Assembly: GCF_013403245.1 (NCBI RefSeq)
Contig: NZ_JACBNQ010000001.1
Span: 248,001 to 312,000 of the forward strand
Origin: Sedimentibacter hydroxybenzoicus DSM 7310
Lineage (GTDB): Bacteria; Bacillota; Clostridia; Tissierellales; Sedimentibacteraceae
DNA length: 64,000 nucleotides
Direction of reading: 5' to 3'
Made by a program: the position numbers and the translations under genes. The notes beneath the pieces were generated by a model. It saw only the letters and a list, made by a program, of their open reading frames with translations, was not told the origin of the DNA and did no database searches. This document shows positions 52,901-64,000 of the stretch, in pieces (the stretch's first letter is position 1; each line of letters opens with the position of its first letter).

Positions 52901-53926
52901 ATGAATAATACAGAATATAAAGGTGTATTTGTATTTGCGGAGCAAAGAGACCGCAAGGTACAAAAAGTTGCCATCGAATTGATAGGCAAGGGCAAGGAAT
53001 TAGCAAAAGAATTACAAACCACAGTAACGGCAGTTCTCTTGGGAACAGACATGGAAGACGAAGCTAAAAGATTGTGCTACTGCGGTGCTGACAATGTAAT
53101 ATATGTAAATGATGAAATGCTTGACGTATATATGACTGAACCATACGTATATGCTCTCAATCAAATCGTAATAGATAAGAAGCCTGAAATTATGCTGTTC
53201 GGTGCAACAGCAATCGGAAGAGATTTAGCCCCGAGAGTATCTGCAAGAGTTCATACAGGCTTGACAGCAGACTGTACAGGCTTGACAATAGAGCCTGACA
53301 GCGATGAGCCCGAAAAATTAAATCTTATGATGACCAGACCCGCATTCGGCGGTAACATAATGGCTACAATTGCATGCCCGAACCACAGGCCACAGATGGC
53401 TACCGTAAGACCGGGAGTTATGCAGGCAGCTAAATATTCGGAAGTAAATCCTGTAAATGTTGAAGAATACAAAATCAACATACCAAAGGAATGCAAAAAT
53501 GTTGAAATATTGGAAGTAACGAAAATAATTCAGCAAAGAATGAATATAGAAGATGCAAAGATATTGGTATCAGGCGGCAGAGGAATGCACGGATCAGAAA
53601 ATTATGCGGTTCTTGAAGAACTGGCTGATTTACTGGGCGGAACAATTTCCGCTTCAAGAGCGGCAGTTGATGCAGGCTGGGTTCCAAAGGACAGACAGGT
53701 TGGACAGACAGGAAAGACAGTAAGACCAAATCTGTACATTGCATGCGGTATATCCGGAGCAATCCAGCACTTGGCAGGTATGGAAGAATCCGAGTTCATC
53801 ATTGCAATCAACAAGGATGAAACAGCTCCTATATTTGATGTTGCCGATGTAGGAATAGTAGGCGATATATTCAAGGTAGTTCCTCTTTTAATAGAAGAAC
53901 TCAAAAAAGAAAAAGTAAGCAGATGA
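52901..53926 (+). CDS. etfA: electron transfer flavoprotein alpha subunit
   Basis: This 341-residue subunit binds the electron-shuttling FAD: SGGRGMHGSENYAVLEELAD near 226-245, GQTGKTVRPNLYIACGISGA near 268-287 and INKDETAPIFDVADVGIVGD near 307-326 are typical. It starts 13 bases after etfB (TAGGAGGCG). A dispersed repeat and a bidirectional terminator lie downstream. Confidence 0.95.
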   Translation: MNNTEYKGVFVFAEQRDRKVQKVAIELIGKGKELAKELQTTVTAVLLGTDMEDEAKRLCYCGADNVIYVNDEMLDVYMTEPYVYALNQIVIDKKPEIMLFGATAIGRDLAPRVSARVHTGLTADCTGLTIEPDSDEPEKLNLMMTRPAFGGNIMATIACPNHRPQMATVRPGVMQAAKYSEVNPVNVEEYKINIPKECKNVEILEVTKIIQQRMNIEDAKILVSGGRGMHGSENYAVLEELADLLGGTISASRAAVDAGWVPKDRQVGQTGKTVRPNLYIACGISGAIQHLAGMEESEFIIAINKDETAPIFDVADVGIVGDIFKVVPLLIEELKKEKVSR

Positions 53927-53946
53927 CCCAAATCTATGATTTGGTG

Positions 53947-54023
53947 TCAGTCGCTTATCCTGAGCGAAAGCGAAGGATCTTGTACGACAAAAGATGAGAT
54001 TCCTCACTAACGTTTGGAATGAC
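53947..54023. repeat. dispersed palindromic repeat (CCTGAGCG...GAAGGATCT family)
   Basis: The left arm TTATCCTGAGCGAAAGCGAAGGATCT-type sequence (53955-53980) and the right arm ending GGAATGACAC form a partly self-complementary element of about 77 bases. Related half-copies occur at 54890 and 54946. Such non-coding repeats are dispersed in many bacterial genomes and behave like small passive mobile elements. Confidence 0.7.
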
Positions 54024-54036
54024 ACAATCAAACATA

Positions 54037-54084: not shown

Positions 54085-54309
54085 TTATTTCATTCCGCCG
54101 CCGCTCATTTGTCTTTGAGCCATTTCAACTAATCTCTTAGTCATGTATCCACCTACATAACCATTTTGTCTAGCTGTAAGGTTTCCTTTATCAACTTGCT
54201 CATAGTTTGTTAATCCTAATTCGTTAGCTATTTCTGTCTTCATCTGATTCAATGCCTGTTTTGCTTCCGGAACAACGATGTTGTTGCTTCCACTATTGTT
54301 TGATGCCAT
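54085..54309 (-). CDS. small acid-soluble spore protein, alpha/beta type
   Basis: This 74-residue DNA-binding protein of the spore core contains the germination-protease site region NELGLTNYEQVDKGNLTARQ and the second family motif GYVGGYMTKRLVEMAQ. It saturates spore DNA and protects it against UV and heat. GAAAGGAG precedes the ATG. It is expected to be read by sigma-G late in sporulation; I could not place the promoter with confidence. Its presence shows that the host is, or recently was, an endospore former. Confidence 0.96.
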   Translation of the reverse strand: MASNNSGSNNIVVPEAKQALNQMKTEIANELGLTNYEQVDKGNLTARQNGYVGGYMTKRLVEMAQRQMSGGGMK

Positions 54310-54845: not shown

Positions 54846-54888
54846 TAAAATAATATTATTCTATATTATTCCCCAATCATATCATCAT

Positions 54889-54975
54889 TATCATCCTGAA
54901 CGCAGTGAAGAAATTTCATTTTTATTGTAATATCATACGGTACTGTCATCCTGAACGTGGTGAAGGATCTCATTG
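54889..54975. repeat. two half-copies of the dispersed CCTGAACG repeat between ribozyme and glmS
   Basis: TCATCCTGAACGCAGTGAAG (from 54890) and TCATCCTGAACGTGGTGAAG (from 54946, running into GATCT) are two direct copies about 56 bases apart, related to the element at 53947-54023. They lie within the glmS leader. Confidence 0.75.
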
Positions 54976-55075
54976 TTTTTGTGTCATCATATAATTGTTT
55001 TTCTTGAAAGATTAAAAAAATTAAATTTCAAGTGCTGTTTTTTATTGTGTAAAAAAATTAGATTGGAGAAGAAAT

Positions 55076-56989: not shown

Positions 56990-57630
56990 TTTAATAACTC
57001 TAACTGATTCCCGTTTATATAATATAAGTGTTTCTTAAAACCAAAGTCATTCAACTGAAAATAAAGTTTATCCCGATAAAAATAAAGTTATTCATAACCC
57101 ACGAGAAAAAATTGGAACTATTAATCTTGATTTTTTCTCTTTTTTATTGATAGGAAACATAAAAAAAAAAAGAAAAAAATGTTGATTAATAATTAAGAAA
57201 TATAGAAAAAGGAAAAGAAAAATATTGAGAAAAGGGATTGAAAAGTCAAAAGATTAGGGTTAATGATAGGGGAAAAAGATTGGGGGAAAGGGATAAAAAA
57301 ATTAAACAGAAAAATCCTAAATTATAATCCATAAATTCTACTTTCTGAACGACTTTTTTCATTTTTTTCTTGGAAAAAGGGATAAAGAGAAAAAAGGAAA
57401 GGGTGTTTTTCTGAATGACCTTCTTTCCATTGGGAGAAGGTGGGAAATGAATTTCAAGAAGTTGGGGGTATAATTTTGAATGAGTTTGTGGGAGTGAACA
57501 ATAAGTTGCGTGTAATAGTTTTGACAAAAATTGGAATATATCGTTTTTCAGATTGTAACCGCCCTATTATGTGCTTACAAAATACCAAATGATAAGTCTG
57601 TCGAAGTGGCAGTATCGAAAATAATAACAA
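56990..57630. other. gene-free A/G-rich tract
   Basis: No convincing gene lies here. From about 57160 to 57480 the plus strand is strongly purine-rich (runs of A and G such as GGGGGAAAGGGATAAAAA), with scattered short tracts. The only open frames are on the minus strand and lack ribosome sites and protein-like composition. Confidence 0.6.
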
Positions 57631-57631
57631 A

Positions 57632-57663
57632 AAATACACTGAAGAGTTACTACAGTGTATTTT
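57632..57663 (-). terminator. terminator after the pro-peptide gene
   Basis: AAATACACTG pairs with CAGTGTATTT around an 11-base loop. On the minus strand it follows the pro-peptide stop codon by a few bases and continues into a T run. Confidence 0.8.
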
Positions 57664-57667
57664 GTTA

Positions 57668-57814
57668 TTAAGCATGATGAACTAAAATAATGGTGCTGCC
57701 TGTTCCCGGTGGGTCATTACATGGATTAGGTGTTGGCGGATTAGTAATAATTGTACCAATCAAAAGAATGGTTAATAATGATCCAATAATTAGTTCTTTT
57801 AAGTGCATTTTCAT
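57668..57814 (-). CDS. small secreted pro-peptide, putative RRNPP signalling peptide (48 aa)
   Basis: This 48-codon ORF lies 96 bases downstream of, and on the same strand as, the HTH-TPR regulator. It encodes a Sec-type signal (positive MKMHLKE, hydrophobic core LIIGSLLTILLIGTIIT), then a Pro-rich linker (NPPTPNPCNDPPG) and a hydrophobic C-terminus ending STIILVHHA, the region from which short pheromones are usually cut. AAAGGATG lies upstream, and a weak own promoter (TTGTTT-N17-TATCAT, 57857-57885) is possible. The layout matches PlcR-PapR, Rap-Phr and clostridial Qsr-Qsp pairs. Confidence 0.72.
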   Translation of the reverse strand: MKMHLKELIIGSLLTILLIGTIITNPPTPNPCNDPPGTGSTIILVHHA

Positions 57815-57910
57815 AATTCATATCATCCTTTTATGTATTTTTTGCATCACATGTAAATGATAACATACTTGAGTTAAAAAAACAAGATATTTTCTTGGAA
57901 ATGTATCAAA

Positions 57911-59194
57911 TTATTTGTGTATTAGGTGACTATTTAAAAATTCTATAGCTTTATCTGTCATATCGTTGTTTAAATACATAAGACACAATTTATTATAAAT
58001 ATCTAATATTGCTTTATAGTCACTTTTTTCTTCTGCAATTTTGAGCGTCTTAATGTAAGCGGTCTCTAGTTCGGCTATTGTTCCAGTTTCAGAGTATATA
58101 TCAATAAGCATGTAATAGCCTTTTAGCACATATTCAATATTGCTGTACTTATTAGCGAGATCAATGCCCAAATTGATTAGTATCAATGCTTCGTTATATC
58201 TTCCAAGTTTTATTAGTATGCCTGCTTTACTTATAAGTGATGAGTCTAAATTTGCAATATCTACTTCAGTTCTGATCTTTTGAGAAAGCTCAAGGTACTC
58301 TATCGCTTTATCGTATTCTTCGACATCAGCATATAATAAGCCTAAATTATTATAGACATAAGCTAACGTAGGTTCTCTTGAACTGCTAAATTCTCCTAAA
58401 AGAGAAAGATATATTATTTCTGCATCTTCAAATTTTTTTAAATCGCGGTAGCAATTAGCTTTAACTATATTAGCATATACATAGTTTATAAAATCAGTGC
58501 TTTTCTCGCATAAAAACAAATATTTATCAGCATATTCAATAGACTCATCAAACTCATGAAGTTTTCTTTGGCATAAAGAAATATTGTAAACAGAATGTTT
58601 TTGTGTATATAAATCATTATTTATTTTGGACAAAAAATATGCTTTATTAAAAAAGAGCAACGCTTCTGCAAAAAATAATTCGTTTAATTTGCAAAGACCC
58701 AATTTGTTAAATAAGTAAGCATCAAATTTATTATTTTCAATTTCACTATATTTACTTAAAGAATCTATATAGTTAAATACTGCTTGAGAATATTTTCTTT
58801 CATCGTAATATATGTTTCCTTTTTTAAGAAGAGCTTCCCCTTCTATGTCACTTAAATCATAATTATGAGAAATCTCAATAACGCTATTAATTAGCTCTAT
58901 AGTAATATCACTATTTAACGCATCCATACAGTATTTAAGAGCTTCATCTTTAGGGGACATAAGTAAATAGGAACTATCAATATTTAAATTGATTCCCAAT
59001 TCATAAGCCTTATTATTGAACTTTTCGGCTAAATAATTTGCAGTATCCTTAGTTAATCCGCGTTCTCCGGTTTCTAACATACTTACATAGTTTCTTCTAA
59101 TTTTTTCGCCTTGCAAATCAAGTTGTTTCATCTTTAACATTTTTCTCGTTTTTTTAATTCTTTCACCAGGGGTTAAAAATTCCATCGCATTCAT
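57911..59194 (-). CDS. HTH-TPR regulator of the RRNPP quorum-sensing type
   Basis: This protein of up to 427 residues has an N-terminal XRE-type helix-turn-helix (about 10-60, with RIKKTRKMLKMKQLDLQGEKI and YVSMLETGERGLT) followed by eight or more TPR repeats (about 85-420). In RRNPP regulators the TPR solenoid binds a re-imported short peptide. The ribosome site AGGAG is only two bases from the first ATG, so the ATG at 59185 (codon 4) may be the real start. Promoter TTGACT-N16-TATAAT lies at 59233-59260. It is divergent from the RiPP cluster, which it probably controls. Confidence 0.85.
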   Translation of the reverse strand: MNAMEFLTPGERIKKTRKMLKMKQLDLQGEKIRRNYVSMLETGERGLTKDTANYLAEKFNNKAYELGINLNIDSSYLLMSPKDEALKYCMDALNSDITIELINSVIEISHNYDLSDIEGEALLKKGNIYYDERKYSQAVFNYIDSLSKYSEIENNKFDAYLFNKLGLCKLNELFFAEALLFFNKAYFLSKINNDLYTQKHSVYNISLCQRKLHEFDESIEYADKYLFLCEKSTDFINYVYANIVKANCYRDLKKFEDAEIIYLSLLGEFSSSREPTLAYVYNNLGLLYADVEEYDKAIEYLELSQKIRTEVDIANLDSSLISKAGILIKLGRYNEALILINLGIDLANKYSNIEYVLKGYYMLIDIYSETGTIAELETAYIKTLKIAEEKSDYKAILDIYNKLCLMYLNNDMTDKAIEFLNSHLIHK

Positions 59195-59232
59195 CTCTCC
59201 TAAAAAGTTTAGGTAATAACATACATTCTTAA

Positions 59233-59260
59233 ATTATATCATAATTTATTTTTTAGTCAA
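59233..59260 (-). promoter_or_regulatory. promoter of the HTH-TPR regulator
   Basis: On the minus strand TTGACT (59255-59260), 16 bases and TATAAT (59233-59238). Confidence 0.7.
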
Positions 59261-59426
59261 AAATTTTTGTTAAAAAGAAAAATTTAAACTCTTGTGTACA
59301 TTAAAAGTATAGATAATTAATCTGAATGGTAGTAATAGAATATAAATAAATGAAAGTATTAAATATCCAATTATTTAATTTAAAACATGCAAGAGTAAAA
59401 AAAGTAACAATAATAATAAAAAAATA

Positions 59427-59455
59427 GTGACAAAATATAAATTTTAAGATATACT
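59427..59455 (+). promoter_or_regulatory. candidate promoter of the RiPP operon
   Basis: GTGACA (59427-59432), 17 bases, TATACT (59450-59455) reads toward the precursor genes. A second weaker candidate is TTGACT (59498-59503) with GATAAC (59522-59527). The rest of the 400-base divergent gap is A/T-rich without other clear elements. Confidence 0.5.
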
Positions 59456-59593
59456 ATATGAAGATAATCAATTTATTGCTTTTACTAAATTAAATGTTTG
59501 ACTAATATGAAATAATTATAGGATAACATTTAATTATAAAAGTATGATATATGCTACTAATAAATGAACAATTTTATAGAAGGAGATGAGATA

Positions 59594-59689
59594 ATGAAAA
59601 AGCTTACAGTTAAAATTTGGAGTGCAAAATCAATAAAAGAGGCATTAAATCAGCAGGTAACAAATGCTTGTCAATATTGCATGAAATAA
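59594..59689 (+). CDS. RiPP precursor peptide 1 (31 aa, CxxC tail)
   Basis: This 31-codon gene is preceded by GAAGGAGATGAGATA. The peptide starts MKKLTVKIWSAKSIKE and ends QVTNACQYCMK, with two cysteines (26 and 29). It is 26/31 identical to the peptide at 59737, and the last 11 residues are identical. The leader contains a Trp (9) and basic residues; the tail is the likely modified core. Two radical SAM/SPASM genes follow, which commonly put thioether or carbon-carbon bonds into such cores. Confidence 0.85.
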   Translation: MKKLTVKIWSAKSIKEALNQQVTNACQYCMK

Positions 59690-59736
59690 GAAATTTATAA
59701 CTAATTTAAAGAAATAATATTAGGAGGTAAAAATAC

Positions 59737-59832
59737 ATGAAAAAGTTAACGACCAAGGTTTGGAGTGCAAAATCAATAAAAGAATCTTCAAATCTACAAG
59801 TAACAAATGCTTGCCAATATTGCATGAAGTAA
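59737..59832 (+). CDS. RiPP precursor peptide 2 (31 aa, CxxC tail)
   Basis: This second 31-codon precursor has a strong ribosome site TAGGAGG. It starts MKKLTTKVWSAKSIKE and ends QVTNACQYCMK. It differs from peptide 1 only at positions 6, 8, 17, 18 and 20, all in the leader, while the tail is unchanged at the protein level and altered at wobble bases (TGT/TGC, AAA/AAG). That pattern indicates selection on the core. It is 73 bases upstream of the first radical SAM gene. Confidence 0.85.
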   Translation: MKKLTTKVWSAKSIKESSNLQVTNACQYCMK

Positions 59833-59905
59833 TTAGACACATACACGAATAATTTTATTAGTAGCTTATATCAACAAATAAACTAAGGACAGAGGTATTA
59901 TAAAA

Positions 59906-61249
59906 ATGATACTAACTTCAAAGATGAGTTCTATAACTTTAAATGATAATGAAATTATAATAGTAAATCTCCTTTCTGGGGCTGTTAATATTTTGAATAA
60001 TGAGATTTATCAAGAACTAAATGATTTACAGAAACTAAGAAATGACTATCCAGAGGTATTTCAAGAGCTAGTAAATGATAAATTTTTATTTGAAAATAAT
60101 ATAGAAGAACAGAAATACTTTGTAGATTTAATAAGTTCAATTAATGAATTGGATATACACGAAGCACCAAATTTTGTAATTTTGCCAACGTATGACTGTA
60201 ACTTGCACTGTGTATATTGCTACGAAAGCACCACAGTTCAAAGGAATATTAAGGATATGTCTGAAGAACAAGCGGAAGCAGTAAAAAGGTTTATTGAATA
60301 CAAGGCTAAAAACTATGATTCTAGTCAAATTAGAATTACATTAATGGGAGGTGAACCTCTATTAATACGAAATAAACAAATAATTGAAGACTTTTTGAAT
60401 TGGGCAAATATATTGAAGTATAAAGTAGATATTGTTACTAATGGCACTACTATACATCAGTATGAAGATATATTGAAAAGGTATGACATTTCTTCATTAC
60501 AGATAACAGTTGATGGGCCAAAAAATATTAATGACAAAAGAAGGATATCAATTGATGAGAAAGGTTCATTTGATAATATCATTGAAGGGATTGACTTGGC
60601 AATAAAGAATAAAATAAAAACGTATATAAGAGTAAATATAGATGTACAAAATATATCTCATTTAAAAGATTTGGCTAAATTTTTAATAAATAGATATGGG
60701 AGCGAAAATAAGTATTTAAGACCTTACTTATACGTAATAAGTGATGGAGGCTGTTTAGGTGATAATTATTGTATACCTGAAGTTGAAGCTGTCAAGAAAA
60801 TAATTGATTTATCAAAAAATAATGAGTGCATGGATATTTATGACCTTGTTTTTCATGGCAGTAATTTTATTAAGGGCGTTCTAAATTCAGATGATTATTT
60901 TCCGCAAAATAGATTTTGTGCAGCTAATAAAAAGCAATATGTTTTGGGTGCGGAAGGAAATATATATAAATGTTGGTTTGGTGTTGGAGAACAAAAATTT
61001 GCATTAGGAACTTATTATCCAGATATTCAAATAAATGAATCGATAGAAAAACTATGGGAAAAACGATGTGTGGAAAATATTCCTAGATGTTATAATTGCA
61101 AGTTTTCTTTAATTTGCGGCGGAGGATGCAATAATAAAGCTATGTCTGCAAATCTTTCTATAATGACACCAAATTGTGCTGACTTTGATAGTCTTTTAAA
61201 GCTTGGATTTAGTTATTATATAGAACGCGGTGATATGCAACTATCATAG
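59906..61249 (+). CDS. radical SAM/SPASM peptide maturase 1
   Basis: This 447-residue enzyme has an N-terminal region of about 90 residues typical of precursor-binding parts, the radical SAM cluster motif C98-x3-C102-x2-C105 (CNLHCVYC), the glycine-rich SAM motif MGGEPLL, TNGTT and TVDGP motifs, and a C-terminal SPASM domain with auxiliary-cluster cysteines (RFCAANKK, YKCWFG, RCYNCKFSLICGGGCNNKA, NCADF). Such enzymes install Cys-based thioethers or other radical cross-links. The ribosome site (GGACAGAGG) is moderate. It is the first of two such enzymes for one short core. Confidence 0.9.
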   Translation: MILTSKMSSITLNDNEIIIVNLLSGAVNILNNEIYQELNDLQKLRNDYPEVFQELVNDKFLFENNIEEQKYFVDLISSINELDIHEAPNFVILPTYDCNLHCVYCYESTTVQRNIKDMSEEQAEAVKRFIEYKAKNYDSSQIRITLMGGEPLLIRNKQIIEDFLNWANILKYKVDIVTNGTTIHQYEDILKRYDISSLQITVDGPKNINDKRRISIDEKGSFDNIIEGIDLAIKNKIKTYIRVNIDVQNISHLKDLAKFLINRYGSENKYLRPYLYVISDGGCLGDNYCIPEVEAVKKIIDLSKNNECMDIYDLVFHGSNFIKGVLNSDDYFPQNRFCAANKKQYVLGAEGNIYKCWFGVGEQKFALGTYYPDIQINESIEKLWEKRCVENIPRCYNCKFSLICGGGCNNKAMSANLSIMTPNCADFDSLLKLGFSYYIERGDMQLS

Positions 61250-61265
61250 CAATAAGGAGATGTAA

Positions 61266-62618
61266 ATGTATTTCAGTAAATATGTATATTATAAAAAAAT
61301 TAATAATGATAAACATTTATTTTTTAATATGCTAAATAATGCGGTTGATTTAATAGAAAATAACAATATTAATTTATCGAACTTTAATGAAATAAATAAT
61401 TATGACCCCAAAACCATAGATTACTTGATGGAGAGAGGACATATATATAATAGTATAGATGAAGAAAATGAGTTAATTGATCAATTGCAACAAATTTCTA
61501 AAAAAATCACTTCAGAAGAGGAGTATTTGCACTTTTATTGTGGTGTGACAATGGAATGTAATTTAGCTTGTTCCTACTGTTTTGAAAAAGAAATTGGAAA
61601 ACAATCAGTTATGACTAAAGAGACAATTGATAAGATGTTTATGACGATAGATAAATTATGCAATCTTCACGAAAACATAAAAAAAAGAGAGTTAACTTTC
61701 TTCGGAGGGGAACCGCTACTAACGGATAACTTTATAACAGTAAATTACATAATGGATAATTTAGTGAGAAAAAATATGGAATCAAATTTTATTACAAACG
61801 GAGTGGATCTAAATCATTTTATAGAATTTTTTAGGATAAATGAAAATAATATTTCAACAATTAGCATTACTCTTGATGGACCAAACAACATTCACGATAA
61901 AAGACGAGTATTTCAATCTGGAGAAGGAAGTTTTGAAATCATTTCACGTAATATTGACTTGTTCCTATCGGAGAATTTATCTATTATGCTTATTATAAGA
62001 ATTAATATCGATTCAAAGAATTATTTGAGTATTAATGAATTAATTGACTACATGGTTAGAAAGGAGTGGTTTAAAAAACCAATTCAGTTACAATTTTGTA
62101 AGGTTGAAGACAATTCTGAAATTGGAGTTAATGATATTATTCCTAATGATCAGTTAATGTCTTTTTTAGGAGATATTTTCAATTTGTATGAAACAAATAT
62201 AGTAGAAAAAATGAAAATAAAAATTAAAGGAATTGAGAAACTTAATAGTATTTTCAATACTGATAAATTGACATTACCTATGTTTAATTATTGTAATACG
62301 TCAAATCTATATGTGTTTGATCCTAATGGAAATTTATATGTATGTCCACAATCAATAGGTGATTTAGACAATGCTGTAGGAGAGTATACTCCGTATTATG
62401 GTATAAACATAATAGAACTAATGAAATGGCAAAAATTTACTGTATTAGATAATAAGAATTGCTCCAAATGCATGTACTGGCCTGTTTGCGGTGGGGGATG
62501 CCGTTATTCGTCACTGAAAAATGGTGGGAAAAAGAATAAAAGTACTTGTAGAAATATTCATGCAGTTGTTGAAAAAAGTGTTAATGATTACATAAGCAGG
62601 ATTATAGTATCTAATTAA
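61266..62618 (+). CDS. radical SAM/SPASM peptide maturase 2
   Basis: This 450-residue homologue of maturase 1 has its cluster cysteines at the same residue numbers (98, 102, 105; CNLACSYC), followed by FGGEPLL, TNGVD, TLDGPNNIHDKRR, and a SPASM domain (FNYCNTS, YVCPQS, NCSKCMYWPVCGGGCRYSS, STCRN). Its N-terminal 90 residues differ strongly from those of maturase 1. Sixteen bases separate the genes (AAGGAGATG). The two may act in sequence on the two Cys of each precursor or form a heterodimer. Confidence 0.9.
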   Translation: MYFSKYVYYKKINNDKHLFFNMLNNAVDLIENNNINLSNFNEINNYDPKTIDYLMERGHIYNSIDEENELIDQLQQISKKITSEEEYLHFYCGVTMECNLACSYCFEKEIGKQSVMTKETIDKMFMTIDKLCNLHENIKKRELTFFGGEPLLTDNFITVNYIMDNLVRKNMESNFITNGVDLNHFIEFFRINENNISTISITLDGPNNIHDKRRVFQSGEGSFEIISRNIDLFLSENLSIMLIIRINIDSKNYLSINELIDYMVRKEWFKKPIQLQFCKVEDNSEIGVNDIIPNDQLMSFLGDIFNLYETNIVEKMKIKIKGIEKLNSIFNTDKLTLPMFNYCNTSNLYVFDPNGNLYVCPQSIGDLDNAVGEYTPYYGINIIELMKWQKFTVLDNKNCSKCMYWPVCGGGCRYSSLKNGGKKNKSTCRNIHAVVEKSVNDYISRIIVSN

Positions 62619-62637
62619 GTAGGGTAGAGGGACAAAG

Positions 62638-63807
62638 ATGTGGAATGTTTATTTAATTTTAATTGTTCAATTTTTTACGACATTCAATTTATATAAAATA
62701 ATATTAACATTATTTTATCAAAAAAGTGGTATGAATCTATTGGAGATAGGTACTATTTTAGCATTTTCATATGTGGCAAAAATAATTTTCGAAATTCCGT
62801 CTGGATATTTAGCAGATAATTTTGGCAGAAAAAAGATTGTTGGTATTGGTCTTTTTGTGTTTGTAATCTTTTTAGTTATGACATATTTTACAAGAAGTTT
62901 GTATAGTTTCATTATTGCATCATTTTTACAAGGTATATCTTTAACACTAACGTCAGGAGCTTTGGATGCCATGCAATATGATGCACTAGTTGATGCTGGC
63001 AAAAAAGATGATGTAGAAAGGTACCTGACTTATGAAAGATTACTAATATCAATAGCATTTGGATGTAGTAGTTTATTTGGAGGATTTCTATCAAATATTT
63101 CATATGACTTAGTTTTTATCCTAAGTATATGTTTTTCGCTTTTTACATCTGTAGTATTTTTATTTACCACAGATAATTTTAATAAGGCTGATCTATATCG
63201 TGAAAATCATAATAAAAAATTCATGAGCAGGTGTATTGCCAATATTTTTGATTCACCATATCTAATGAAATGCATGAATATTACAATTATAATTTCTTTT
63301 GTTATGATCCCAATAGATGATTATTATTCTTTAATTTTAAAGGGAGAAGGTCTAAATGAAAGCTTAATAGGAATTATTAGTTTTAGTCAATTTTTTATAA
63401 GTTCATTCTTTGGATTTTTTTGCAAATATTTGCAAGCAAGCTATGGAAGAAATAAATTGATAGATATATTGCCTTTTATTATATTTTTATTTTTACTAAT
63501 TTTCGCAATTTCAAAAGAAAGAATATTAATTTTTGTATCATATACGATGCTTTTAATTATTATTGCACTTTTAAATCCAATTAAATATTCTATTATGCAA
63601 GGGTTAATAGAAAGAGAGTATAGGAGTACCATAATTTCAATTCAAAGTTTGTTGATGGCTTTAACTGCAGTTATTAGTCAACCACTGTTTAGTTTTTTAA
63701 TGTTAACATTTGGCAAAAGTTTGACTATTATACTCTTTATTCTTATGTCTTCATTGCTGCTCGTTTTGAACATAGTTTTTTTTAAAAATAAACTTGTGGA
63801 GGTATAA
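62638..63807 (+). CDS. MFS transporter, probable RiPP exporter
   Basis: This 389-residue protein of the major facilitator superfamily has about 12 hydrophobic segments, with motif A GYLADNFGRKKIVG near 56-69. No peptidase or ABC domain is present. Its place inside the RiPP operon, 19 bases after maturase 2, suggests export of the finished product or self-protection. GTAGGGTAGAGGG precedes the ATG. Its stop codon is one base from the next ATG. Confidence 0.85.
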   Translation: MWNVYLILIVQFFTTFNLYKIILTLFYQKSGMNLLEIGTILAFSYVAKIIFEIPSGYLADNFGRKKIVGIGLFVFVIFLVMTYFTRSLYSFIIASFLQGISLTLTSGALDAMQYDALVDAGKKDDVERYLTYERLLISIAFGCSSLFGGFLSNISYDLVFILSICFSLFTSVVFLFTTDNFNKADLYRENHNKKFMSRCIANIFDSPYLMKCMNITIIISFVMIPIDDYYSLILKGEGLNESLIGIISFSQFFISSFFGFFCKYLQASYGRNKLIDILPFIIFLFLLIFAISKERILIFVSYTMLLIIIALLNPIKYSIMQGLIEREYRSTIISIQSLLMALTAVISQPLFSFLMLTFGKSLTIILFILMSSLLLVLNIVFFKNKLVEV

Positions 63808-63808
63808 A

Positions 63809-64000
63809 ATGCATATATTAGTGGTTGGTGGATATACAGAAATACATGAAAGATTACACCAATATGGAGCAAGAATTACCCATTTTACGGAGAAAGAGAT
63901 GTTAAATGTTAGCTGTAAAATATATTATAGGCAAATCGGTTTCAATTCTAACGAATCTCATGATAATTTTATTAAAATAGCAAGTGCCATAAATGAAATT
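63809..64000 (+). CDS. start of a probable ATP-grasp-type protein, cut by the window edge
   Basis: The first 64 codons of a gene run off the window. It opens MHILVVGGYTEIHERLHQYG, with a beta-strand/glycine turn typical of the pre-ATP-grasp domain of peptide and amino-acid ligases. GTGGAGG lies inside the end of the MFS gene, so the genes are coupled. If confirmed, an ATP-grasp ligase would add an amide or ester bond to the RiPP or its free C-terminus. The fragment is too short for a firm call. Confidence 0.45.
   Translation, partial: MHILVVGGYTEIHERLHQYGARITHFTEKEMLNVSCKIYYRQIGFNSNESHDNFIKIASAINEI

What the first reader, a model, noticed from the sequence alone, without database searches (positions are those of the whole stretch)
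57668..64000. Quorum-sensing RiPP locus: RRNPP regulator + pro-peptide divergent from a radical SAM cluster
Seen: an HTH-TPR gene and a following small secreted peptide gene on the minus strand face a rightward operon of two precursors, two radical SAM/SPASM enzymes, an MFS transporter and a probable ATP-grasp gene. Known: in streptococci, Rgg/SHP peptide signalling controls radical SAM RiPPs such as streptide. Inference: this is a clostridial counterpart that uses a TPR regulator, a different Cys-x-x-Cys product and two maturases. It is the best candidate in this window for an undescribed system.
Basis: partly seen in the sequence, partly recalled or inferred. Interest (0 to 1): 0.9.

Follow-up and report, generated by a model that had tools for sequence, protein, structure and literature searches.

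The report
Peptide-signal switch for two peptide-making operons
A bacterium of the clostridial kind carries what looks like a quorum-sensing switch (a secreted mini-peptide and its receptor) that, judging by a matching DNA site in front of each, controls two operons for making a modified peptide, and a related species seems to use the same switch for a chemically different peptide.

Summary
An HTH-TPR regulator (57911-59194, minus) is followed by a 48-residue secreted pro-peptide. Both face a rightward operon: two 31-residue precursors with an identical QVTNACQYCMK end, two radical SAM/SPASM enzymes, an MFS gene and an L-amino-acid-ligase-like ATP-grasp gene. Beyond the window lies a second operon (two FemAB-like genes, TIGR01210-like radical SAM, GNAT, MFS, ATC-hydrolase-like).

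Evidence beyond adjacency: a spaced dyad, GTMAC-N17/18-GTGACAAAA, lies at the promoters of both operons and nowhere else in the 3.8-Mb genome. A same-genus relative (G021, regulator 52% identical, pro-peptide with the same DPPGxG motif) has it twice too: at the pro-peptide promoter and before the adjacent RiPP cluster, which has a different chemistry (YcaO/SagB plus radical SAM). So the switch looks portable and its payload changes.

Against: the motif was fitted to these four sites and a backwards control is nearly as frequent across the order, so the weight rests on position; the third ortholog (G006, 74% complete) has neither dyad nor adjacent RiPP genes; the own pro-peptide promoter has no dyad; nothing is bench-tested. 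RRNPP control of RiPPs is known in streptococci and predicted in clostridia, so this is a new variant.

The parts
57630..57666 (-). stem-loop with T-run after the pro-peptide gene (terminator-like), conserved in G006
   Evidence: alignment of downstream sequence, own vs G006; read by eye, not listed by the consensus scan
57668..57814 (-). 48-aa secreted pro-peptide (predicted pheromone precursor), ...NPPTPNPCNDPPGTGSTIILVHHA
   Evidence: related peptides beside the orthologous regulators in G006 and G021; DPPGxG shared
57911..59194 (-). HTH-TPR regulator, RRNPP-like, nine TPR hairpins in the model
   Evidence: Pfam TPR and HTH_19; model pLDDT 83; NprR among sequence and fold matches
59233..59260 (-). 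sigma-A-like promoter of the regulator (TTGACT-16-TATAAT)
59404..59431 (+). predicted operator dyad GTAAC-N18-GTGAC of operon 1 (centre -44.5)
   Evidence: with the following AAAA, 2 sites in the own genome, at these two operons
59427..59455 (+). promoter of operon 1: GTGACA-17-TATACT; right half of the dyad is the -35
59594..59689 (+). precursor peptide 1, MKKLTVKIWSAKSIKEALNQQVTNACQYCMK
   Evidence: coding pattern of its end found only in the own genome among 391 class genomes
59737..59832 (+). precursor peptide 2, MKKLTTKVWSAKSIKESSNLQVTNACQYCMK
59906..61249 (+). radical SAM/SPASM maturase 1; model begins b-b-b-a-a-a (RRE-like)
   Evidence: fold matches 5why/5wgg, SuiB, TigE
61266..62618 (+). 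radical SAM/SPASM maturase 2
62638..63807 (+). MFS transporter (probable exporter or immunity)
63809..64000 (+). ATP-grasp, L-amino-acid-ligase-like (in-window part; gene ends at window-equivalent 64987)

Best explanation
This is an RRNPP-type peptide quorum-sensing switch wired to a radical SAM RiPP gene cluster. The 48-residue peptide is secreted by its signal sequence, cut to a short pheromone around the conserved DPPGTG stretch, and re-imported; it binds the TPR domain of the regulator. The regulator dimer binds the dyad GTMAC-N17/18-GTGAC through its two HTH domains. Because that dyad is centred near -44 at the RiPP operons and near -65.5 (two helical turns further) at the relative's pro-peptide promoter, it most likely acts as an activator. 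It switches on operon 1 (precursors, two maturases, MFS, amino-acid ligase) and operon 2 (FemAB-like x2, TIGR01210-like radical SAM, GNAT, MFS, ATC-hydrolase-like), which together make, extend and export a peptide built on the C-terminal NACQYCMK. Shown by sequence: gene content, the dyad, where it lies in G000 and G021. Inferred: binding, activation, the pheromone's sequence, and that both operons serve one product.
For: Dyad pattern TTTTGTCAC-N17/18-GTKAC (reverse complement of the site): 2 in G000, 0 in G006, 2 in G021; backwards control 1, 0, 0; order-1 expectation 0.05 per genome. The pattern was fitted to these four sites, so the evidence is that they are the only ones in G000 and G021, that all lie within about 7 kb of the regulator, and that each sits at a promoter. 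In the own genus (25 genomes) the only other matches, one each in G003 and G022, lie inside reading frames. Of 20 AGTGACAAAA sites in the three genomes, 6 lie outside reading frames by my caller; 3 of these (own op1, own op2, G021 RiPP operon) have a good -10 (TATACT, TATAAT, TACAAT) at 17 nt in front of an operon. Orthologous pro-peptides follow the regulator in G006 and G021. SPASM genes are few (3 in G000, 1 in G006, 3 in G021), so one beside the G021 regulator is unlikely by chance (about 2%, my estimate). Receptor resembles NprR by sequence (4gpk 1.2e-8) and fold (5e-7).
Against: Close orthologs: 3 of 249 order genomes, and one of them lacks dyad and adjacent RiPP genes; so linkage outside the own locus, which was the starting point, is 1 of 2. 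The motif is not rare in the order: 27 of 248 genomes, 31 matches, against 18 genomes and 21 matches for the backwards control; genomes with two or more matches are 3 for the pattern (G000, G021, G149) and 3 for the control (my count). The looser dyad GTNAC-N15-20-GTNAC occurs 4 times in the three regulator loci (simulation mean 0.8 but maximum 5 in 200 runs) and 5 times in six loci around distant regulators, 4 of them intergenic by my caller. The backwards form of AGTGACAAAA is commoner (51) than the pattern (20). Two further AGTGACAAAA sites have weaker -10-like hexamers at 17 nt: GATAAT inside a terminator-like stem in own contig C4, and TAAATT 135 nt before a dehydrogenase-like gene in G021 that has a better promoter nearer. 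The own pro-peptide promoter has no dyad. op1 and op2 share 27 of 28 bp and may not be independent. Fold matches are generic: eukaryotic LGN ranks above NprR. No binding or expression data.
Confidence: 0.68

Rival explanations
1. Same switch, opposite sign: the regulator without peptide represses both operons by covering the -35 hexamer, and the pheromone releases it.
For: In three of four sites GTGACA of the dyad is itself the -35 hexamer, a position where a bound protein can block RNA polymerase.
Against: In G021 the dyad at the pro-peptide promoter is centred at -65.5 for the nearer TATAAT (a second TATAAT would give -88.5), upstream of the -35 and two turns from -44, which suits an activator better.
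Confidence: 0.3
2. Chance neighbours: a Qsr-like regulator that governs something else (for example sporulation) happens to lie beside a RiPP island, and the dyad belongs to another regulator of RiPP operons.
For: More distant regulators of this family have no gene similar to the cluster's radical SAM genes in the stretches I fetched; G006 keeps regulator and pro-peptide without RiPP genes; the cluster is AT-rich and beside IS remnants, so probably imported. The published view links nine-TPR receptors mainly to dormancy (PMC12700828).
Against: In G000 and G021 the only dyads lie near the regulator, and in G021 one is at the pro-peptide itself; the two RiPP clusters share no chemistry beyond radical SAM.
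Confidence: 0.18
3. The cluster's product is not an antimicrobial but a signal or a small metabolite: the short precursors act as scaffolds that the ATP-grasp and FemAB-like enzymes extend with amino acids before release.
For: Precursors of only 31 aa with an invariant C-terminus; L-amino-acid-ligase-like ATP-grasp and two FemAB-like genes, one above the Pfam cut-off, under the same promoter element.
Against: No precedent in the one paper search made for it (none for radical SAM + FemAB + RiPP); operon 2 may make a separate product.
Confidence: 0.3

Closest known systems
Rgg/SHP-controlled RaS-RiPPs of streptococci (streptide, tryglysin)
   Same: Cytoplasmic peptide-sensing HTH-TPR regulator with a pheromone gene next to a short precursor and radical SAM maturase operon (PMC13361665, passages)
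   Different: Rgg is a five-TPR protein of a clade specific to Lactobacillales (PMC12700828, section 7); here nine TPR hairpins in the model, a signal-peptide pro-peptide of DPPG type, two maturases, an amino-acid ligase and a second operon
Qsr/Qsp (QssR) systems of solventogenic clostridia
   Same: Secreted pro-peptide encoded directly downstream of the receptor (PMC7376267, passages); QssR is a nine-TPR receptor (PMC12700828)
   Different: QspB active peptide is AEPTWGW and the system affects solvents and sporulation; here a DPPGxG peptide and linkage to RiPP operons with a shared dyad
AimR arbitrium receptor of SPbeta phages
   Same: Dyad operator with a long spacer and a very similar half-site: ATCACT-N25-AGTGAT (PMC6458997, passages) versus GTCACT-N15-AGTGAC in G021
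   Different: Spacer 9-10 bp (about one turn) shorter; chromosomal RiPP targets, not a phage; TPR motifs here are recognised by Pfam, not degenerate
RRNPP_detector candidate biosynthetic clusters
   Same: 196 clusters with an RRNPP system inside, including Clostridiaceae 7, Peptoniphilaceae 1, Tissierellaceae 1 (PMC10075063, section 12)
   Different: Those are adjacency predictions; individual loci were not listed in the text I read, so overlap with this one cannot be excluded
CefB- and CteB-like radical SAM/SPASM peptide maturases
   Same: Best NCBIfam match of both enzymes is NF038107 (CefB), 152 and 173 bits; best fold match of maturase 1 is 5why, 1.1e-18 (that this is CteB is recalled)
   Different: Far below the CefB cut-off of 600 bits; the precursor has no Cys-every-fifth pattern

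Membership tests
RRNPP(A) quorum-sensing system | N-terminal HTH plus C-terminal TPR domain (five or nine repeats) | tested here: met
   TPR hits above cut-off, HTH_19 just below it; model shows nine helical hairpins after the HTH by my reading
RRNPP(A) quorum-sensing system | Adjacent small gene for an exported pro-peptide | tested here: met
   48-, 48- and 51-aa peptides with a hydrophobic segment next to the three orthologs; read by eye, no signal-peptide program was run
RRNPP(A) quorum-sensing system | Mature peptide binds the TPR domain and changes DNA binding | not testable with these tools
   needs a binding assay
RRNPP(A) quorum-sensing system | Sequence/fold kinship with a validated member | tested here: inconclusive
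   NprR 1.2e-8 by profile and 5e-7 by fold, but generic TPR proteins score as well or better
Rgg/SHP-RaS-RiPP | Five-TPR Rgg receptor | tested here: not met
   nine TPR hairpins in the model
Rgg/SHP-RaS-RiPP | SHP exported by PptAB | not tested
   PptAB not searched
Radical SAM/SPASM RiPP maturase | CX3CX2C and SPASM cysteines | tested here: met
   both enzymes; both match TIGR04085
Radical SAM/SPASM RiPP maturase | Leader-binding RRE domain | tested here: inconclusive
   b-b-b-a-a-a N-terminus in the model of maturase 1, the RRE layout as recalled; no RRE profile among the Pfam hits; the N-terminus was not searched alone
Radical SAM/SPASM RiPP maturase | Acts on the adjacent precursor, forming cross-links | not testable with these tools
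   needs reconstitution and MS
CefB (NF038107) | Score above curated cut-off 600 | tested here: not met
   152 and 173 bits
AimR arbitrium | Encoded by a phage with AimX/lysogeny targets | tested here: not met
   dyads lie at RiPP operons and a pro-peptide gene; I recognised no phage genes in the translations listed; no phage search of the locus was run

The most novel reading that the evidence does not exclude
A mobile nine-TPR quorum-sensing cassette (receptor, DPPG pheromone, and a portable AimR-like dyad operator about one helical turn shorter) that is attached to interchangeable RiPP payloads: a CQYC radical SAM peptide with amino-acid-adding enzymes here, a YcaO/SagB/radical SAM hybrid in G021. 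It would show that nine-TPR receptors, so far tied mainly to dormancy, also run chemical warfare or chemical signalling, and it would give a DNA motif for finding silent clusters.
Probability: 0.42. Interest if true: 0.7.

Novelty: new variant of a known kind. Interest (0 to 1): 0.56.

Why it matters
RiPP clusters are often silent in the laboratory. Here a pheromone candidate, its receptor and a specific operator are all visible, so one synthetic peptide and one mobility-shift assay would test the whole circuit and might switch on production of an unknown compound (short CxxC precursor, two radical SAM enzymes, ligase and FemAB-like genes). The published contrast (nine-TPR receptors mainly for dormancy, five-TPR mostly for biosynthetic clusters; PMC12700828) makes a nine-TPR receptor wired to two different RiPP clusters a direct exception to examine.

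Tried and rejected
Rejected: membership in Rgg/SHP (TPR number), in CefB or in any other of the NCBIfam maturase families shown (below cut-off). Rejected: an Rfam element in the long 5' leaders (0 matches at gathering scores in L003, L043, L044). Rejected as weak: a GTGATGCAAAA stretch in the own and G006 pro-peptide leaders (read by eye); it lies downstream of the presumed -10 and is not a dyad.

Led nowhere: the regulator alignment in genome contigs found only one locus, which fits the G006 contig in length and identity (titled a Clostridiales bacterium); radical SAM 1 in viral contigs, none; radical SAM 1 in plasmids, 82 records, all under 60% identity (the best-placed row 31.6%), taken as generic; FemAB-like gene in plasmids none and, at E <= 1e-15, only the own copy in 391 class genomes; regulator in plasmids only a Nostoc TPR protein; the operon-2 gene of 202 aa has no Pfam family and no solved relative better than E 0.79. 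A Sarcina plasmid with radical SAM + MFS showed no comparable precursor by eye. Of 20 loci around radical SAM matches (L005-L024), besides the own precursors, L017 and L022 gave precursor-like MKPIIxxSW peptides; hits in L013, L018 and L020 were not convincing; not pursued. In G603 and G451 (regulators 25-37% identical) no small frame beside the regulators has DPPG and no gene resembles the cluster's other proteins by BLAST, though one regulator in each is followed by a small secreted-looking peptide.

Result that weakens the motif if read alone: in 248 order genomes it is present in 27 (31 matches; backwards control 18 genomes, 21 matches). Besides G000 and G021 there are 25: 15, all in family f4, carry a different, longer palindrome; of the other 10, 7 matches lie inside reading frames, 2 are intergenic by my simple caller and 1 was not resolved. 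None of the 25 has a close ortholog of the regulator; G043 has a distant relative (1.7e-24).

Papers: passages read in PMC10075063 (plus section 12), PMC13361665, PMC8102284, PMC7376267, PMC6458997, PMC9765709, PMC12700828 (plus section 7); all others seen only in listings. Searches listed no paper that, by title and start of abstract, describes this locus or operator; several lists were cut (for example 15 of 26, 10 of 14), and supplementary tables could not be read.
Full report
WHAT IS THERE. The window is positions 248001-312000 of contig C1 of a 3.81-Mb genome. On the minus strand lie a 427-aa HTH-TPR regulator (57911-59194) and, 96 bp behind its stop, a 48-aa peptide gene (57668-57814), followed by a stem-loop with a T-run conserved in G006. 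On the plus strand lie two 31-aa precursors (59594-59689, 59737-59832), radical SAM/SPASM genes (59906-61249, 61266-62618), an MFS gene (62638-63807) and an ATP-grasp gene cut by the window end. The contig beyond the window (L003; L003 position + 54999 = window position) shows the ATP-grasp gene whole (392 aa, to 64987) and a second operon: a 202-aa protein without family, a FemAB-like protein (1.7e-8), a second weaker one (0.0026, below cut-off), a TIGR01210-like radical SAM protein (139 bits, cut-off 212), a GNAT, a second MFS and an ATC_hydrolase-family protein, then IS remnants (my reading of the translations).

THE PRECURSORS. They differ at five residues, all before position 21, while QVTNACQYCMK is identical despite three silent codon differences, as expected for a conserved core. 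The coding pattern for NACQYCMK was found in 1 of 391 class genomes, the own one, twice. The radical SAM enzymes carry the motif cysteines. The model of the first (10-sequence alignment, pLDDT 77) begins with three strands and three helices, the layout of a leader-binding RRE as I recall it, and its best fold matches are 5why/5wgg (CteB, name recalled), with SuiB and TigE among the top ten. The best NCBIfam match is CefB at 152 and 173 bits, far below 600.

THE REGULATOR AND PEPTIDE. The model (3-sequence alignment, pLDDT 83) has an HTH followed by helices that I read as nine TPR hairpins. NprR and Rap proteins are among the matches by sequence and fold, though generic TPR proteins such as LGN rank first in the fold list. 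Close orthologs: 3 of 249 order genomes including the own one; in a class sample of 391 genomes, which includes some of the order, 2 others had a relative at E <= 1e-35, at 25-37% identity. In all three close cases the peptide gene follows the regulator; M1, K2, L5, L17, I22, I23, D34-P-P-G37 and G39 are invariant. Several other Qsr-like regulators of the order are also followed by secreted-looking peptides, with DPxPW-type ends in some.

THE OPERATOR. A 49-bp element recurs in front of both operons at 82% identity, with 27 of 28 positions of its first part the same (my count). TAGTGACAAAA-N4-AA occurs 2 times in the own genome, 0 in G006, 1 in G021; backwards control 0, 0, 1. Reading upstream revealed a partner half-site: own op1 GTAAC-N18-GTGAC, own op2 GTAAC-N17-GTGAC, G021 RiPP operon GTCAC-N17-GTGAC, G021 pro-peptide GTCAC-N18-GTGAC. 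With AAAA behind it this dyad occurs 2, 0 and 2 times in G000, G006 and G021 (control 1, 0, 0), against 0.05 expected per genome. The pattern was written after seeing these four sites, so what counts is that there are no others in G000 and G021 and that all four sit at promoters near the regulator. GTGACA is the -35 in three sites, 17 nt before TATACT, TATAAT and TACAAT; dyad centres are -44.5, -44.0 and -44.0, and -65.5 at the G021 pro-peptide promoter if its nearer TATAAT is used (start site assumed 7 nt after the -10). The two positions differ by two turns of DNA, which favours an activator. The half-site resembles that of phage AimR, ATCACT with a 25-bp spacer (PMC6458997).

THE RELATIVE. 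In G021 the regulator (52%) and pro-peptide are followed on the same strand by a Cys-rich 85-aa precursor, a PapB-like radical SAM/SPASM gene (252 bits, cut-off 340), a SagC/ThiF-like gene (below cut-off), a SagD YcaO gene (248.6, above cut-off) and a SagB gene (119.9, above cut-off). This is another class of RiPP. Flanking genes differ in the three loci by my reading and the own cluster is AT-rich (G+C 27-29% against 36% for window 1-55000), so regulator plus peptide seem to move. SPASM genes number 3 in G000 (two here), 1 in G006 and 3 in G021. The own locus is where the study began, so only the relatives test linkage: with three SPASM genes in 3.6 Mb, one within 10 kb of the G021 regulator has a chance of about 2% (my estimate), and linkage was found in 1 of 2 relatives.

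COUNTER-EVIDENCE. G006 (74% complete) has regulator and peptide without dyad or neighbouring RiPP genes. The own pro-peptide promoter lacks the dyad. In 248 order genomes 27 have the pattern (31 matches), the backwards control 18 (21 matches); genomes with two or more matches are 3 and 3 (my count). The 25 other pattern genomes are a distinct f4 palindrome (15) or mostly matches inside genes. The looser dyad also occurs 5 times around distant regulators in G603 and G451, among them one between tandem regulators and two just behind a regulator; whether these matter is open. The two own promoters may derive from one another. Nothing shows that operon 2 serves the same product.

JUDGEMENT. The kind is known: Rgg/SHP-controlled RaS-RiPPs (PMC13361665 passages) and 196 predicted RRNPP-linked clusters, some clostridial (PMC10075063 section 12). 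What is new here is a nine-TPR receptor, a concrete operator that can be tested, two operons under it, and a change of RiPP chemistry between species under the same switch.

Noticed in passing
54085-54309 (-): Small alpha/beta-type acid-soluble spore protein (by my reading of the translation), so the host is probably a spore former.
   Followed up: no
53888-54035 and 54866-54994: Repeat-like stretches whose frames read HPERGEGSH / SFAFAQD, resembling a dispersed palindromic repeat.
   Followed up: no
L003:16762-19000 (window-equivalent 71761-73999): IS256-like and IS21-like (istA/istB) fragments and an HTH-less TPR protein fragment flank the second operon (my reading).
   Followed up: partly
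order genomes: L124-L130, L132-L136, L139-L141: A different conserved intergenic palindrome, mostly TTTTGTCACGRATATGATACAATATCCGTGAC, in 15 genomes of family f4; function unknown.
   Followed up: partly
L107, L109, L112, L113: Full-length Qsr-like regulators followed by secreted-looking small peptides with DPEPW, DPCPW or HPWV near the end.
   Followed up: partly
L154:16388, L158:8396 and 8463: Looser GTNAC-N15-20-GTNAC dyads between tandem distant regulators and just behind one, possibly a wider operator type.
   Followed up: no
L045, L047, L048: Radical SAM clusters with MKSLNxxIWN precursors and an M55-like aminopeptidase gene (by my reading) in related genomes; the leader resembles the MKKLxxKIW start here.
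   Followed up: partly
L084 (Streptomyces plasmid pFRL5): TIGR01210-like radical SAM gene beside P450, serine hydroxymethyltransferase and sugar genes, a biosynthesis-like setting.
   Followed up: no
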